Source: Bacteroidia bacterium (GTDB lineage Bacteria > Bacteroidota > Bacteroidia > CAIKAF01). From it: DNA of 49,250 nucleotides. Where the stretch lies: assembly GCA_030427255.1 (NCBI GenBank), contig JAUHWY010000024.1:1-49250 (forward strand), read 5' to 3'. Below the pieces are notes generated by a model. It saw only the letters and a list, made by a program, of their open reading frames with translations. It was not told where the DNA came from and did not search any database. Within the stretch, counting starts at the first letter, position 1. The number at the start of each line of letters is the position of its first letter. Shown one piece after another: positions 150 through 9,200 of the stretch. The position numbers were made by a program, and so were the translations under genes.

Positions 150-223
150 GGGCTCTTAGCTCAGCTGGTTAGAGCATCTGACTCATAATCAGAGGGTCGC
201 TGGTTCAAGCCCAGCAGGGCCCA
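150..223 (+). tRNA. tRNA with CAT anticodon (tRNA-Met or tRNA-Ile2)
   Basis: A full cloverleaf can be drawn. The 7-bp acceptor stem pairs 150-156 with 216-222, with one G-U pair. The D-arm follows, then a 5-bp anticodon stem TCTGA/TCAGA around the loop CTCATAA (anticodon CAT), and a T-arm GCTGG/CCAGC with loop TTCAAGC. The discriminator is A223 and no CCA is encoded. The loop does not separate elongator Met from the lysidine-modified Ile2 that reads AUA. The T-arm and 3' half closely resemble E. coli ileX, so Ile2 is a real possibility. Confidence 0.95.
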
Positions 224-573: not shown

Positions 574-725
574 AGATTCCCCTCCGTGTGTCAACTGCCT
601 TTGGAAGCAGACCTTGAAAAGCAATAGGGAAAAATGAAGCCATTTTTTCTTTTCATGCGTCCAATGCGCTCACTATATCTCAGCTAGGTAGTTTCTAAAA
701 AAGTGTGTAAAGGGTTCCTGAAAAT

Positions 726-820
726 GTCCTCTACATCTTGCAGCCCTCCGTGCCCACCCTTAGGGCAAATTTCGGAGTTTTCAAAAGCACTGTCGTTTAT
801 TAAACGCTTGTAAACGTTTT
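726..820 (+). repeat. Dispersed ~90 bp repeat, copy 1 of 3
   Basis: This copy matches 5214-5305 and 6913-7002. Shared blocks are CCGTGCCCACCC, GGCAAATTTCGG, and CGTTTATTAAACGCTT followed by TAAACGTTT. The first part folds as CTCCG-TGCCC / GGGCA-CGGAG. The second part contains CGTTTA and two inverted TAAACG copies. It lies about 150 bp after palindromic element a. An 18-bp word at 694-711 just upstream recurs upstream of copy 3. Confidence 0.8.
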
Positions 821-961: not shown

Positions 962-1423
962 ATGACCAACATTCCTAGCCTCGACACCAGACTTATAACA
1001 GATCTATTAAAGGAAATTGGAGAGCTTGTTCCAATCGCAAAAACTACCATAAAAGGAGAGTCTGCAGTGTGTATTGAAGTTGAAGGAAAAATGAAAATGA
1101 CTTACTTTTTAAGTCTCAGCAAAATAATGATTGTTATCAGTATCCTGTATATAAAAGTTTCAAAGATTGGACAACCCGAATTGAGCATTAAACTGGATAA
1201 CATTTCTGGATTTCTATATTATGGGATTATTTTTGTTTCTAGCCTTTTGGTTATGCTATTTTCAGATATCCCTCGGCTTCTTTTCACCATTCTTATTCCC
1301 GCCCAACTTTTGTTCTTTTCTTTAGTTATTTATTTAACAAACAAATATGTAAAATTTATAATTAAAGAGAGCTACCAAAAAGTATTGCTTCGATATCATT
1401 TCCTTACGAATAAAAACAACTAA
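962..1423 (+). CDS. Hypothetical membrane protein, 153 aa
   Basis: I do not recognise a family. Residues 1 to about 45 are soluble and mixed (MTNIPSLDTRLITDLLKEIG). Three hydrophobic stretches follow, at roughly 47-66, 83-103 and 106-128, and then a basic tail (YVKFIIKESYQKVLL). This suggests an inner-membrane protein with a cytoplasmic N-terminal segment. A TAnnTTTG promoter candidate precedes it. The 240 nt after it contain no gene I can support. Base composition is AT-rich compared with the housekeeping genes in the window, in keeping with an accessory gene. Confidence 0.55.
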   Translation: MTNIPSLDTRLITDLLKEIGELVPIAKTTIKGESAVCIEVEGKMKMTYFLSLSKIMIVISILYIKVSKIGQPELSIKLDNISGFLYYGIIFVSSLLVMLFSDIPRLLFTILIPAQLLFFSLVIYLTNKYVKFIIKESYQKVLLRYHFLTNKNN

Positions 1424-4136: not shown

Positions 4137-4424
4137 ATGGGCTTAAACGACCATAAATCAGGAAAGGAGGCGAATCCATGGGCACAACAGACGGACCAAG
4201 CACTCGAACAGTGGCTGCAAAAAAACCGGCCCAAACCACTTTTTGATGCCTTTTTCATCGGTTTTTTGATTGGGATTTTAATCTTTGGCGCCGCGGCAAA
4301 CGTTTGGGGCTTTTTTGCCCTCATCCCTTTGGTTCTTATATACCTGTTTCTAAAAAAACCGAAGCAATATGCCGCGGCAAAGCAGGAATGGGAGCGTAGG
4401 AAAGGCAGCAAGGTCAGCGGATAA
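4137..4424 (+). CDS. Small membrane protein, 95 aa, hypothetical
   Basis: A hydrophilic N-terminal 35 residues (Gln/Lys-rich) precedes a hydrophobic hairpin at about 36-72 (FDAFFIGFLIGILIFGAA, then FFALIPLVLIYLFL). The C-terminus is basic (KKPKQYAAAKQEWERRKG). The frame can open at GTG 4131, but ATG 4137 is preferred because AAAGGAG (4125-4131) sits 5 nt before it as a ribosome binding site, which is uncommon in this phylum. The function is unknown. The next gene follows after a 48-nt gap. Confidence 0.6.
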   Translation: MGLNDHKSGKEANPWAQQTDQALEQWLQKNRPKPLFDAFFIGFLIGILIFGAAANVWGFFALIPLVLIYLFLKKPKQYAAAKQEWERRKGSKVSG

Positions 4425-4446
4425 TAAACAATTCAGTAATAAAAAA

Positions 4447-4454
4447 TAAATTTG
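4447..4454 (+). promoter_or_regulatory. Candidate -7 element TAAATTTG
   Basis: A TAnnTTTG match lies 18 nt before the ATG at 4473. No TTG is seen at the expected upstream distance, so support is weak. Confidence 0.3.
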
Positions 4455-4472
4455 GATGTAAATGAAATTCAG

Positions 4473-4769
4473 ATGATTAGTTCAATAAAATTTCTTTCAT
4501 TAATTCTACTGTTTTTTTTCTTTGGCTGTAGGGAAGGAAAAAATAGAAACAATACCTTTTGGAAATACAATGGAGGTTACCATATTGGGGACTTCATATG
4601 TTTATCAAATGACCATATCGAACATTCCTTTATTGGAGATACGATTTGTTTCCGCAATGAAATTGCGCTTATAAAAACATTTAGGTTCAACGAATTAATT
4701 ATTATTAGTGAAAACGGAGATCAAGGGCGTTACTGGTACAAAGGCAAATGCGAAAAAGGGTATCCTTAA
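4473..4769 (+). CDS. Putative small lipoprotein, 98 aa
   Basis: From ATG 4473 the protein begins MISSIKFLSLILLFFFFGC. This is a lipoprotein signal peptide with a lipobox ending in the Cys at residue 19. The frame is open further upstream to a TTG at 4452, but starting there would put charged residues in front of the signal. The mature part of about 80 residues is rich in Asn, Gly and aromatics (FWKYNGGYHIGDFICLSND) and contains two further Cys. It is probably membrane-anchored on the periplasmic side or outer membrane. No family is recognised. Confidence 0.6.
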   Translation: MISSIKFLSLILLFFFFGCREGKNRNNTFWKYNGGYHIGDFICLSNDHIEHSFIGDTICFRNEIALIKTFRFNELIIISENGDQGRYWYKGKCEKGYP

Positions 4770-4967
4770 AACTTTTTTATTGAAAGAAAAAATAAGTTTG
4801 GGGTTCATTATTGCCTGTTAAAATATCTTCCCAAACCGAATGATCCAATTTGAAGTTTCTTTGTTTTGGGCCTTTCCTCCGTGGCTGCGTCAGGAATTCT
4901 AGTCGGCCCTTGTTCCGGCCAGCCTTGCCCCTGCTTGGTTTGGGGGACATGCGGTGACTTACTCGAA

Positions 4968-5032
4968 GCATTAGGTCGTCCATAGACCCCTACGGCAGCG
5001 TAGGGGCCTCCTCGGCCTCCCCAAACCAATGC
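4968..5032 (-). repeat. GC-rich palindromic element c
   Basis: The inner hairpin is perfect: CCCCTACG (4987-4994), loop GCAG, CGTAGGGG (4999-5006). On the minus strand, GCCGAGGAGGC precedes it, the family core. The outer arms GCATTAGG (4968-4975) and CCAATGC (5026-5032) are weak. GC-rich flanks run from about 4870 to 5080. The stretch 4770-5574 holds this element and repeat copy 2, but no supportable gene. Confidence 0.55.
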
Positions 5033-5213
5033 AGCGGCTGCGGCGGGTCCTCCCTTGGGGCCTTGGAGGCCACTCTTTGCAGTTTCTTTACTCTATAAAG
5101 TAGTTCAGACTCCCCTGTTCCCTGATTGAAATCAAGGGACAAGGGCATCTAAAGATCTGGGCCCTAGGAGATTTGCGTTTGCCTTTTCTCAGAAGAATGA
5201 ATACATCCAGTGG

Positions 5214-5305
5214 TTTTATCCTGTGCAGCAAGCCGTGCCCACCCCTGGGCAAATTTCGGGGTTTTCAAAATCTGGAATCGTTTATTAAACGCTTATAAAC
5301 GTTTA
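5214..5305 (+). repeat. Dispersed ~90 bp repeat, copy 2 of 3
   Basis: It begins TTTTATCCTGTGCAGCA, as in copy 3, and shares CCGTGCCCACCC, GGGCAAATTTCGGGG and CGTTTATTAAACGCTTATAA with the other copies. The nested pairing is CCG-TGCCC / GGGCA-CGG. It lies about 135 bp after the GC-rich patch of element c. Confidence 0.8.
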
Positions 5306-5574
5306 TTGGGGGTAACTTCTCAATCTAGGTAACTCCTGTCAATACTCTTTTTATGGTTGATAGGAATCTCAGTAAACCTTATCCTTTGCCCTTCCAAAAT
5401 CCAATTCTCAGGCAAAGTTCTTGTTGTGATCATACATCCTTCATGAGAAATAAATCCCTTTAATCACCGTTAAAATTCAAATTGTACTGTTCGTGATATT
5501 GAACCTAAATTCTTTTTCATTAGAATGGAGACAATCGAAACAGTAACGATTACAACCCTTTAAATGAACTTAAA

Positions 5575-6699
5575 ATGAAAGTTTTGTTTTTTTTAGCCAC
5601 CTTTAGCCCTTTAATGAGCCAAACAGAAGCGTGTTATGTGATTGAAAATTCCATGAAATTAGAGTCTGATTACTCTGAAGTGCTTAGAGAGATACCCTGC
5701 GAACAGTTCAACTCTGTAGATTCACTTTGTATTTTTAAGATTTCAACCAAGACAGCTGAAAGTGAAGAATACCATAAAGACTCGGTGCTTTATTGGTCTA
5801 GTGGGGAAGTTTATATTTCCTATAAATTGGATAGCCTTGGTCGAATTCTGCCTGGTATCTATTTCGGGTATGATGAATTAGGCAATATAGAATTTAGGAA
5901 AGAGGTCTCGAAAAGGAAATCCAATAACGGAAGGACTTTGGTCCGAACTCTTTACCTTGGACCTTTTGAACTTTACCGCCACCAAAATATCTTGTTGGAT
6001 ACTACTTACGAAGATATTGGTGTTGCAAATGCTTACAACCAAGGTGGTTCATATTTGATTAATCGGGTGAATGGGTATGGAGTTTTTCAGGTTGTATCAT
6101 TAGGTTATGGGGTGGATAATGGTATACTAAATATAAGAGGCTTCAATTCTCGTCTACTTTTTGAAAATGGTTCCTCCTTTCAAAGACCTCATGGTTGGAA
6201 TTTTATAGCCTCAAACAACTATAAAAGTTTTACGGTTTATAGAGAAGACTATGGTGAAATAGTGGAGGGAATTACCGCAGGTGAAGTAAATGGAGTAGAA
6301 AGCTTAAGTAAGACCTCTTCAAGTACAATGGCCCTTGATTCAAATAATTTTGCTCATTTTCTTCATTTAAATAAGGGTACATTAAAAATTGCATGGAAAG
6401 AACAGTATGGAAGCTTAGAATTGATTGAATACATAAAAGATTCATATCCAGAAGAACCATTCTACAAAAATGAGAATAGTTCCAAAATTTTCATAAACGA
6501 AGATCTTGGGTGGGTGGAGCATATTCAATTTATAAAAGATGGAGCCCTTTATCGTGAAGATGGTTATAAAAACTGTAGACTCGTCATTTCAAGAGTCTGG
6601 GAAGGTGATGGTTATTATATATACAGGTATGATTACCCATCGGGAAAGATTACAAGGGAAAGGGAAAAGGAATTAGAACGAGTACGTATAGGACGTTAA
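5575..6699 (+). CDS. Hypothetical exported protein, 374 aa
   Basis: A short hydrophobic N-terminus (MKVLFFLATFSPLMSQTEAC) looks like a signal peptide, although it has only one Lys and is short. The Cys near residue 20 may be part of the mature chain. The rest is beta-prone with many Tyr, Gly and Asp, including stretches such as YKLDSLGRILPGIYFGYDELG that resemble the YD/RHS or MORN-like repeats of toxin-antitoxin immunity or surface proteins. No clean repeat register is visible, and the C-terminus is highly charged (REREKELERVRIGR), not a T9SS tail. Function is unknown. It is AT-rich and flanked on both sides by copies of the dispersed repeat. Confidence 0.65.
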   Translation: MKVLFFLATFSPLMSQTEACYVIENSMKLESDYSEVLREIPCEQFNSVDSLCIFKISTKTAESEEYHKDSVLYWSSGEVYISYKLDSLGRILPGIYFGYDELGNIEFRKEVSKRKSNNGRTLVRTLYLGPFELYRHQNILLDTTYEDIGVANAYNQGGSYLINRVNGYGVFQVVSLGYGVDNGILNIRGFNSRLLFENGSSFQRPHGWNFIASNNYKSFTVYREDYGEIVEGITAGEVNGVESLSKTSSSTMALDSNNFAHFLHLNKGTLKIAWKEQYGSLELIEYIKDSYPEEPFYKNENSSKIFINEDLGWVEHIQFIKDGALYREDGYKNCRLVISRVWEGDGYYIYRYDYPSGKITREREKELERVRIGR

Positions 6700-6739
6700 A
6701 AACAATAGTATTTTGAAGGCAAAAGCATTGCTGTTAATG

Positions 6740-6757
6740 TCTAAAAAAGTGTGTAAA
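6740..6757 (+). repeat. 18-bp word shared with 694-711
   Basis: TCTAAAAAAGTGTGTAAA is identical at 6740-6757 and 694-711, each time upstream of a copy of the ~90 bp repeat (29-156 nt away). It resembles the terminal sequences of some IS256-type elements, but no transposase or matching opposite end is present. Confidence 0.5.
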
Positions 6758-6912
6758 CCTAACACTAACACCACTTCAATAACCAACAAAAAAATTGCTC
6801 ACCTAAAATTAAAAGACACCACCTTGGAATCAGGGGTTGGAGTATTTAATGAGATGTTCTTGCAGTGCTTTGCGTCTGATTTCTCTCCAAAATCTGAAAG
6901 CATTTAGCACAT

Positions 6913-7002
6913 TTATCCTGCGCAGCACTCCGTGCCCACCCTCATGGCAAATTTCGGAGTTTTTAAAGGTAAAGTCGTTTATTAAACGCTTATAAACGTT
7001 TC
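6913..7002 (+). repeat. Dispersed ~90 bp repeat, copy 3 of 3
   Basis: It starts TTATCCTGCGCAGCA. The hairpin is CTCCG-TGCC / GGCA-CGGAG, one pair shorter than in copy 1 because both sides changed. It ends CGTTTATTAAACGCTTATAA then ACGTTT. Palindromic element d lies about 190 bp downstream. No gene is seen between 6700 and 7583. Confidence 0.8.
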
Positions 7003-7191
7003 CCTGTAAGAGTAAAACCCAAATTCATTTCTTGGTAAATTTTATTCTAAGCATGGTAGACCTAATCCACTTATGGTATATAAGCGTTCGGGGACTTTTT
7101 GGAGAATTTCTTTGTGTTGCATTAGGTATTGAAGCCGGGATTTCTTCAAATATAGCCCGGCCTTGGTACGGAGGCCGAAAACCCACAGCCT

Positions 7192-7268
7192 TGGGCCTTA
7201 GGCAAGCGGGCAGCGAGGAGGCTCCCGATTTTCGGGAGACCCCGGAGCGCCGGCTTGCCTTAGGCCCA
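7192..7268 (+). repeat. GC-rich palindromic element d
   Basis: Outer arms of 16 bp (7192-7207 TGGGCCTTAGGCAAGC and 7253-7268) pair with a single mismatch. Inside are GCAGCGAGGAGG and a perfect inner hairpin CTCCCGA/TCGGGAG. This is the same layout as the elements at 25938-26025 and 41097-41175. Confidence 0.7.
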
Positions 7269-7307
7269 TGGCGAGGATTTGAGGCCGGAGGACTTGTGAT
7301 ACACTTT

Positions 7308-7450
7308 GAGGCCGTTGACGCGTTGTGTTTTCAAGGCGAATTAAGGCACGGTCAATTTAAAAGTCCGCAGTTTACTAGTTGTAAATGAGGAACTTGAGAA
7401 TTGGCCGTAACGCAAAGTCGCCGTCAGAATAGCAACGCGTCAACGGTCTC
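7308..7450 (+). repeat. ~143-bp imperfect inverted repeat
   Basis: The left arm (about 7308-7357) and right arm (about 7398-7450) are related in inverted orientation. The outer 18 nt are nearly perfect (GAGGCCGTTGACGCGTTG against GAGACCGTTGACGCGTTG) and similarity fades inward. It lies between element d and the rplQ terminator. A decayed small mobile element or a structured RNA are both possible. Confidence 0.6.
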
Positions 7451-7523
7451 ATTTTATGCCGGAGGGTAATTCAGGCCCCAAAAAACTAAAATAACATGCC
7501 TGTGGCAAGAAAAGGAATTGGAC

Positions 7524-7553
7524 AAAAAAAACCGCCTCAAATGAGGCGGTTTA
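7524..7553 (-). terminator. Terminator of the spc-alpha ribosomal operon
   Basis: Read on the minus strand, AAACCGCCTCA and TGAGGCGGTTT form an 11-bp stem with a 2-nt loop, running into a T tract. It starts about 30 nt after the rplQ stop and ends the ribosomal protein cluster. Confidence 0.9.
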
Positions 7554-7583
7554 CTTGCCATATAGGCATGATTTGTTGTTGTA

Positions 7584-8171
7584 TTATGCCTTGTCTTCCG
7601 CCTGATCGGCAGCATCGTCCTTGGCTGGCGCATCCGCTTCTTTGGATGTATCTGCCTCTTCGGCTTTGGCTTTGGCCTTGGGTGCTTTGGCCTCCTTTTT
7701 AGGCGCCTCTTCCTGGGCTTTTGCCTCCTCCGTTCCGGCTGTGGCAGCCTTACCGGCACGACGCGTACGCTTACGGGTAGAAGATTTGGCCTTTTGCTCG
7801 GTGAGTAGGTTTTCGTTGAAGTCTACCAACTCAATAAGGGCCATTTCGGCATTGTCGCCTTGACGTGCACCCAACTTAATGATGCGTGTGTAGCCGCCCG
7901 GGCGGTTAGCAATTTTAACGCCCACCTCACGGAACAGCTCAGCAACGGCATGTTTGTCGCGCAGGTAAGAAAATACCATCCGACGGGAGTGGGTATTGTC
8001 GTTTTTAGCTTTGGTGAGGATAGGCTCCACAAACACGCGCAGGGCCTTAGCTTTAGCGACGGTGGTGTGGATGCGCTTGTGCAAAATAAGGCTGTTGGCC
8101 ATGTTCATAAGCATGGCATTGCGGTGGGCAGCCTTTCTTCCTAGGTGATTGAATTTCTTTCCGTGTCTCAT
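7584..8171 (-). CDS. rplQ: 50S ribosomal protein L17 with long charged tail
   Basis: The family start [20 protein letters not shown] is clear, and residues 1 to about 120 form the normal L17 core that sits near the peptide exit tunnel. Residues 121-195 are an extra Ala/Lys/Glu-rich low-complexity tail, basic at first ([11 protein letters not shown]) and then strongly acidic ([12 protein letters not shown]). Typical L17 is about 120-130 residues; Bacteroidota homologues are often longer. This is the last gene of the alpha part of the locus, 36 nt after rpoA. Confidence 0.98.
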
Positions 8172-8207
8172 GACAAATCCATTGGGCGTTTACCGCCGTT
8201 TACGTTA

Positions 8208-9200
8208 TCAGTCTTTATCCAGTTTGTATTTGGCAACATTCATACCAAATTGCAGACCTTTGCTTTTAACTAAGTCTTCGAGTTCTACCAAAGACTTTTT
8301 ACCAAAGTTACGGAACTTAAGCAGGTCAGTCTTGTTGAACGAAACCAAATCGCCAATGGTTTCTACATCGGCAGCTTTGAGGCAGTTGAGGGCACGTACC
8401 GAAAGGTCCAAGTCAACCAATTTGGTTTTGAGCAATTGACGCATGTGAAGTGACTCCTCGTCGAATTCTTCGGTTTGCGCCTTTTCTTCCGTATCCAAGG
8501 TGATCTTCTCATCGCTAAACAAGGCGAAGTGTTGGATAAGAATCTTTGCAGATTCCTTAAGTGCTTCCTTGGGCATGATAGAGCCGTCGGTTTGCACATC
8601 AATCACCAATTTTTCGAAGTCGGTTTTTTGCTCTACCCGGTAATTTTCAATGGCATACTGCACATTTACGATAGGGGTAAAGATGGAGTCGATGGCGATG
8701 GGTCCAATTTCATCGATGAGGACCTTATTTTCGTCTGCAGGACGGTAGCCACGACCGGAATGAATGCAAAGCTCAATGTTGAGTTTTACGGAAGAGTCCA
8801 TGTGGCAAATTACCAGATCCGGATTCAGTATTTGAAAAGCGGAGGTAAATTTGGTAATGTCCCCTGCGGTGAATGCCTCGGCTCCGGAGAAGCTGATGTT
8901 AACCTTTTCGGAATCTACCGAATCAATCTGCCGCTTAAGGCGTACCTTTTTAAGGTTAAGAATGATTTCGGTCATATCTTCTACTACCCCTTTAATGGTA
9001 GAGAACTCATGATCGACGCCTTCCACCTTAACAGAGGTAATGGCGAAGCCTTCCAGGGAAGAGAGTAAGATACGGCGAAGGGCGTTACCGATGGTTATAC
9101 CATAGCCGGGCTCCAGAGGGCGGAATTCAAATTTGCCTCGGGTGTCATCTGATTCAATCATGATGACTTTATCTGGCCGCTGAAAATCTAAAATAGCCAT
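8208..9200 (-). CDS. rpoA: RNA polymerase alpha subunit
   Basis: At 330 residues the length is normal. The N-terminal dimerisation and assembly domain (about 1-230) contains [20 protein letters not shown] short acidic linker (about 235-255) leads to the C-terminal DNA-binding domain with [20 protein letters not shown] and [13 protein letters not shown]. The Arg equivalent to E. coli R265 and the following NCLKA are kept, so UP-element type DNA contact is possible. It lies between rpsD and rplQ, as in nearly all Bacteroidota. Confidence 0.99.

What the first reader, a model, noticed from the sequence alone, without database searches (positions are those of the whole stretch)
726..820. Three-copy ~90 bp repeat with a nested hairpin that changes on both sides
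Copies at 726-820, 5214-5305 and 6913-7002 keep CCGTGCCCACCC, GGCAAATTTCGG and CGTTTATTAAACGCTT. The nested hairpin is retained although its outer and inner pairs differ: CTCCG/CGGAG in copies 1 and 3 but CCG/CGG in copy 2, and TGCCC/GGGCA in 1 and 2 but TGCC/GGCA in 3. The conserved CGTTTA and TAAACG words add an inverted and direct repeat. Each copy lies within about 200 bp of a GC-rich palindrome. It may be a non-autonomous mobile element or a small structured RNA.
Basis: seen in the sequence. Interest (0 to 1): 0.62.

Follow-up and report, generated by a model that had tools for sequence, protein, structure and literature searches.

The report
Repeated competence-type promoter beside toxin cassettes
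The three repeats are copies of a multi-copy, apparently non-coding promoter element that shares its control site with DNA-uptake genes in this bacterial group and often sits beside silent toxin-gene cassettes, suggesting that DNA uptake, toxin cassettes and their reshuffling may be linked.

Summary
The repeat is real: 12 full copies, 2 diverged ones and 2 of a sister type in this genome; one sister species has 9 matches. Read on the minus strand it is a promoter: a 23-bp operator (CGTTTATAAnCGTTTAATAAACG), 20-21 nt, a Bacteroidota -7 box (GAAATTTG), then at the expected start an invariant GGGTGGG (21 of 21 copies) and a small stem-loop. The same operator-box layout precedes natural-transformation genes in several Bacteroidota: one ssb paralogue, comEA-like, comEC, comM, an amidase (RadA control 0 of 12). 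Copies on other contigs precede orphan Rhs-core cassettes, and flanks are reshuffled at the element. Best reading: competence-controlled non-coding transcription units; I favour a cis role in recombination, as at Neisseria pilE, over a trans small RNA. The promoter layout is well supported; control by competence is inferred; function is untested.

The parts
794..816 (-). copy 1: 23-bp operator
   Evidence: pattern and alignment
766..773 (-). copy 1: -7 box GAAATTTG, 20 nt from the operator
   Evidence: spacing test; positions
753..759 (-). copy 1: GGGTGGG at the expected transcription start
   Evidence: invariant in 21 of 21 copies
742..754 (-). copy 1: small RNA stem-loop (4 of 5 pairs)
5279..5301 (-). 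copy 2: 23-bp operator
5250..5257 (-). copy 2: -7 box GAAATTTG, 21 nt from the operator
5238..5244 (-). copy 2: GGGTGGG
5227..5239 (-). copy 2: small RNA stem-loop (4 of 5 pairs)
6976..6998 (-). copy 3: 23-bp operator
6948..6955 (-). copy 3: -7 box GAAATTTG, 20 nt from the operator
6935..6941 (-). copy 3: GGGTGGG
6924..6936 (-). copy 3: small RNA stem-loop (5 of 5 pairs)
5575..6699 (+). 374-aa ORF between copies 2 and 3, in a stretch absent from G004; no Pfam family
962..1423 (+). 153-aa ORF to the right of copy 1; its leader weakly resembles the Rhs cassette leader; no Pfam family

Best explanation
Each copy is a minus-strand promoter of a multi-copy, non-coding transcription unit that belongs to a natural-competence-type regulon of Bacteroidota. 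Supported by sequence: operator, fixed spacing, -7 box, G-run at the expected start, no gene downstream, the same operator on transformation genes, many copies, reshuffled flanks. Inferred: that the unit is transcribed (about 0.75), that the operator is bound by a competence regulator (about 0.7), and that what matters is transcription in cis through the G-run: an RNA-DNA hybrid on the C-rich strand frees the G-rich strand and promotes recombination beside cassette genes, as proposed for the pilE G-quartet and its small RNA in Neisseria (about 0.35 for this last step). The block shared by all copies ends about 25-30 nt after the expected start and the rest of the transcript differs between copies, which suits a cis role better than a trans RNA.
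For: Layout: TAnnTTTG-like box (score 7 or more) at spacing 20 in 9 and at 21 in 17 of 60 site clusters, 0-5 at every other spacing from 5 to 49. Regulon: operator near comEC 6 of 17, comM 4 of 17, RadA 0 of 12, Lon 0 of 1; ssb 10 of 30, in two-ssb genomes always the lower-scoring paralogue; ComEA-like 7 of 14; long HHH_3 proteins 0 of 10; Amidase_2+CUB gene in this genome. Four of these gene types are transformation genes in a Riemerella transposon screen (PMC8459023, section read). Non-coding class: GGGn0-2GGG in 12 of 60 clusters (shuffles 0.3), 0 of 12 with a downstream ORF against 26 of 48; 34 of 395 genomes with the model. GGGTGGG 21 of 21. Flank reshuffling and break points at copies. 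pilE precedent: PMC3547852 passages.
Against: No expression data. The regulator is unknown. In this genome comEC and comM lack the operator. A strict two-tetrad G4 pattern is present in 7 of 34 non-coding clusters (expected 0.6) and is marginal in many window-type copies. In G063 the units sit between ordinary genes and end in terminator-like hairpins, and the stem-loop may point to a product-based role. Reshuffled flanks could come from plain homologous recombination. The 18 test genomes were chosen because most had operator matches, which favours ssb in particular.
Confidence: 0.55

Rival explanations
1. A family of trans-acting small RNAs: the promoter is as above, but the product (GGGUGGG plus a small stem-loop) pairs with mRNAs or binds a protein.
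For: Stem-loop with at least 4 of 5 pairs in 21 of 21 copies and one two-sided change; terminator-like ends in G063; no gene downstream.
Against: The part shared by all copies is only about 25-30 nt, and across genera only the promoter and a G-run persist; no Rfam match.
Confidence: 0.25
2. Inert promoter debris: a competence promoter was caught in duplicating Rhs cassettes and spread with them, without a function of its own.
For: Copies travel with homologous Rhs leaders; homologous recombination explains the spread.
Against: The operator is intact in nearly all copies and GGGTGGG in 21 of 21 while flanks and hairpin arms drift; gene-less G-rich units recur in other genera without Rhs genes beside those examined.
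Confidence: 0.2
3. SOS (LexA-type) operators rather than competence operators.
For: ssb is in both kinds of regulon, and LexA motifs change often in evolution (PMC8565304, passages).
Against: The published Bacteroidetes motifs GGA-N5-TCC and CTAA-N5-TTAG are not in the operator consensus; the partners here are comEC, comEA-like and comM genes, RadA has no site.
Confidence: 0.06
4. Non-autonomous mobile element (MITE-like).
For: Multi-copy, about 90 bp, near variable genes.
Against: No target-site duplications; no terminal inverted repeats recognised; the same promoter layout on housekeeping and transformation genes; orthologous positions of some copies in G004.
Confidence: 0.05

Closest known systems
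Neisseria pilE G-quartet and its cis small RNA (PMC3547852, passages read)
   Same: A non-coding promoter whose transcript starts in a G-run, beside a gene family with silent copies that exchange by recombination.
   Different: Here many dispersed copies, the promoter carries an operator shared with transformation genes, G-runs are often too few for a strict quartet, and exchange is only inferred.
Competence regulons, for example CRP-S/TfoX of Vibrio or ComK/ComX of Gram-positives (recalled)
   Same: One operator on ssb, comEA-like, comEC and comM genes.
   Different: Operator sequence and phylum; the regulator is unknown; a large gene-less class of sites.
Polymorphic toxin (Rhs) cassette arrays (PMC3482391, passages read)
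   Same: Orphan Rhs-core ORFs each followed by a small ORF, in arrays; exchange by recombination with standalone cassettes is proposed there.
   Different: Here the cassettes are preceded by the promoter element; no toxin domain was identified by Pfam.
Bacteroidetes SOS boxes (PMC8565304, passages read)
   Same: Palindromic operators, ssb among the targets.
   Different: Other motif; other gene set.

Membership tests
Natural-competence regulon promoter | operator shared with DNA-uptake and ssDNA-handling genes, absent from controls | tested here: met
   comEC 6/17, comM 4/17, ComEA-like 7/14, ssb 10/30; RadA 0/12, Lon 0/1, long HHH_3 0/10
Natural-competence regulon promoter | induced with competence by a known regulator | not testable with these tools
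   no expression data; regulator unknown
Bacteroidota sigma-A-type promoter | -7 box TAnnTTTG at fixed distance (consensus recalled) | tested here: met
   9/60 clusters at spacing 20 and 17/60 at 21, 0-5 elsewhere
pilE-type G-quartet with cis small RNA | transcript starts in a G-quartet-forming run | tested here: inconclusive
   G-run invariant, but two-tetrad pattern in 7/34 non-coding clusters
pilE-type G-quartet with cis small RNA | transcription is required for exchange between silent and expressed copies | not testable with these tools
   only reshuffled flanks seen
Non-autonomous mobile element (MITE) | target-site duplications | tested here: not met
   shared words no longer than in re-paired edges
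Known RNA family (Rfam 15) | match over or near the gathering score | tested here: not met
   only a tRNA in the window; no match up to E 0.1 in 10 loci with such units
Bacteroidetes SOS box | GGA-N5-TCC or CTAA-N5-TTAG | tested here: not met
   operator consensus compared by eye with the published motifs
Rhs polymorphic-toxin cassette array | Rhs core domain behind the element | tested here: met
   TIGR03696 in 3 of 3 orphan ORFs on C2 (one just below the cut-off) and 2 of 2 in G004; not in the window itself
Integron attC site | RYYYAAC/GTTRRRY core sites and an integron integrase nearby | not tested
   looked at by eye only; no consistent core pair seen

The most novel reading that the evidence does not exclude
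Many Bacteroidota carry a dispersed class of competence-switched recombination starters: promoters that transcribe a G-run in cis, open the DNA during competence and drive exchange of silent toxin and surface-gene cassettes, a multi-locus counterpart of pilE that links DNA uptake, toxin repertoire and recombination.
Probability: 0.25. Interest if true: 0.92.

Novelty: new variant of a known kind. Interest (0 to 1): 0.72.

Why it matters
The papers listed by my searches describe no competence operator for Bacteroidota. An operator that marks ssb, comEA-like, comEC and comM genes together gives a direct handle on the missing regulator. If the many gene-less units are active, they are either a new multi-copy small-RNA family or cis elements that steer recombination toward toxin cassettes; one map of RNA 5' ends would begin to decide.

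Tried and rejected
Integron-like attC site: suggested by direct repeats 1-2 kb apart; set aside because no consistent core pair was seen by eye and the same 23-bp word lies in ordinary gene promoters. SOS box: the published motifs differ. Mobile element: no target-site duplications. A rightward promoter inside the repeat for the Rhs genes: the -7 box fits only the leftward reading; a separate rightward promoter may lie between repeat and ATG, not resolved. Rfam: nothing. A published name for the operator: one paper holds the string CGTTTATAAACG, on a scallop kinase (search listing only). Pfam on cassette and window ORFs: no family over its cut-off.

Full report
What is there. The window is contig C47 of a 57-contig assembly; its relative G004 has contig lengths equal to those of the record 'Flavobacteriales bacterium isolate M30B58'. 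The three repeats are confirmed. In the whole assembly there are 12 full copies, two diverged copies 200 bp apart on C50, and an operator-only match on C53; C10 and C30 hold a sister type of the same layout. In 60 genomes (own one included) only this genome and G004 have BLAST matches, 15 and 9.

Surroundings. On C2 five copies lie on one strand about 1.4-2.2 kb apart, on C32 three, on C1 one. Three of the C2 copies are followed by an ORF that starts about 80 nt further on, carries an Rhs core (TIGR03696; 40.0, 48.3 and 30.4 bits, cut-off 32.5) and is followed by a smaller ORF, the order of a toxin tip and its immunity gene. No toxin domain was named by Pfam. Long rhs-like genes of 2810 and about 3020 aa lie elsewhere, on C32 and C30. 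The sister type precedes two Rhs-core ORFs in G004. In the window no Rhs core was found; copy 1 has a weakly Rhs-leader-like right flank, and copies 2 and 3 flank a 374-aa ORF in a stretch that G004 lacks between the aligned segments 4857-5327 and 7156-7314.

The operator. The 3' part, 23 bp, occurs alone in other places: upstream of ssb, of a gene with an HHH_3 domain, of an Amidase_2+CUB gene and others. An exact-pattern scan of genome contigs gave 10 stretches, 4 of them from the G004 record; the other 6 come from 5 genomes, and 2 of those 6 lie by ssb. Collected sites (101 distinct, 60 clusters by downstream sequence) show a Bacteroidota-type -7 box (TAnnTTTG, consensus recalled) at spacing 20 in 9 and at spacing 21 in 17 of 60 clusters at score 7 or more, against 0-5 of 60 at any other spacing from 5 to 49.

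Regulon test. In 18 genomes, chosen because most had operator matches or are of the genus, I took family members and looked near their starts: comEC 6 of 17 with at most 5 mismatches (the next has 6, the rest 9 or more), comM 4 of 17, RadA 0 of 12 and Lon 0 of 1. For ssb I examined 30 of 34 listed loci: 10 have at most 6 mismatches, and where a genome has two ssb genes it is the lower-scoring one. ComEA-like proteins of 237-327 aa: 7 of 14; long HHH_3 proteins 0 of 10. The ssb count is biased, since some genomes entered through ssb sites. This genome itself has the operator at ssb, the comEA-like gene and the amidase gene, but not at comEC or comM. Independent support: a transposon screen in Riemerella anatipestifer lists ComEC, YifB (ComM), an HHH protein, DprA, ComF, RecA and an N-acetylmuramoyl-L-alanine amidase as transformation genes (PMC8459023, section 17 read; the passages found discuss no promoter). 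That the amidase here matches the one there is not tested. Other genes with the operator: DUF2851 (two genomes) and a tyrosine recombinase.

Two classes. In 12 of 60 clusters a GGGn0-2GGG run follows 28-50 nt after the operator (shuffles: 0.3), and none of these 12 has an ORF of 80 aa starting within 160 nt, against 26 of the other 48 (by hand about 4e-4). The window repeats belong to this gene-less class. GGGTGGG is invariant in 21 of 21 copies of this genome and G004. A model made of 21 such sequences finds 34 of 395 class genomes, 17 of 196 genera, with 12 matches (the scoring cap) in seven of them. Of 19 new loci checked, several with low scores are coding promoters (ssb in G127, a likely HHH gene in G003), and several in genomes not used for the model are G-rich and gene-less (G131, G217, G244, G099); G-rich columns were part of the model, so this last point is partly by construction.

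Structure. In the leftward RNA a five-pair stem-loop after the G-run is complete in 15 of 21 copies and has four or more pairs in all, with one two-sided change shared by the C50-type copies; these are few events. In G063 the G-run leads into terminator-like hairpins with T-runs.

Recombination. Left flanks fall into L0 and L1 (the small C50/C12 groups aside), right flanks into R0 (Rhs leader), R2 and singletons; L0-R0, L1-R0, L0-R2 and L1-R2 all occur, so exchange has happened at the element. Some links rest on short or weak similarity (L1: 35-49 nt; copy 1 to R0: 62-68%). The two flanks of the C32 array lie about 33 kb apart and in a different order in G004, with copies at the break points. 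Plain homologous recombination between repeats would do this too.

Mechanism. Shown by sequence: layout, copy number, shared operator, G-run, lack of genes, shuffled flanks. Inferred: transcription, its control by a competence regulator, and a cis effect on recombination. The nearest worked example is the small RNA that starts inside the pilE G-quartet of Neisseria; there the promoter is needed for pilin variation while changes in the transcript beyond the G-run are not (PMC3547852, passages). The block conserved in all copies here ends some 25-30 nt after the expected start, as such a cis role would allow. A trans RNA and inert debris remain open.

Literature. The rows listed by searches include no paper on this operator or on a Bacteroidota competence regulon; the library holds only open-licence papers, so this is no proof of absence.

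Noticed in passing
L117 (G226:C84), operator at 1501-1523: A tyrosine recombinase (Phage_integrase, Phage_int_SAM_4) starts about 47 nt behind an operator with a TAGGTTTG box at spacing 21.
   Followed up: no
L108, L113: DUF2851 genes next to the operator in two genomes of different families: a candidate transformation gene, direction relative to the operator differs or needs checking.
   Followed up: no
L127 (G063:C65), 5514-8743: Three gene-less units separate a methyltransferase gene, a secreted non-specific endonuclease, a polysaccharide deacetylase and a lumazine synthase gene, like single-gene inserts.
   Followed up: partly
L014 (C50) 261-538; G004 C12 92022-92301; G217 C108 10604-11074: Tandem pairs or triples of the unit about 200 bp apart, conserved in position between this genome and G004.
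   Followed up: no
G031 C3:254222-254376 and C4:136948-137101; G226 C8:3985-4141; G316 C26:66-220: Back-to-back divergent pairs of the unit, 9-12 bp apart.
   Followed up: no
window 684-720 and 6739-6757: A word GTGTCTAAAAAAGTGTGTAAA, also left of C2 and C32 copies, that looks like an insertion-sequence end (recalled resemblance).
   Followed up: no
window about 430-590, 4900-5070, 7150-7314: GC-rich palindromic repeats that recur in G004 in both directions.
   Followed up: no
window 150-223: A tRNA gene to the left of copy 1, in the direction its promoter would read.
   Followed up: no
L027 (C15) 4362-5006: A gene that looks like a REP-associated transposase (by reading, not tested) beside a single operator, with a counterpart in G004.
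   Followed up: no
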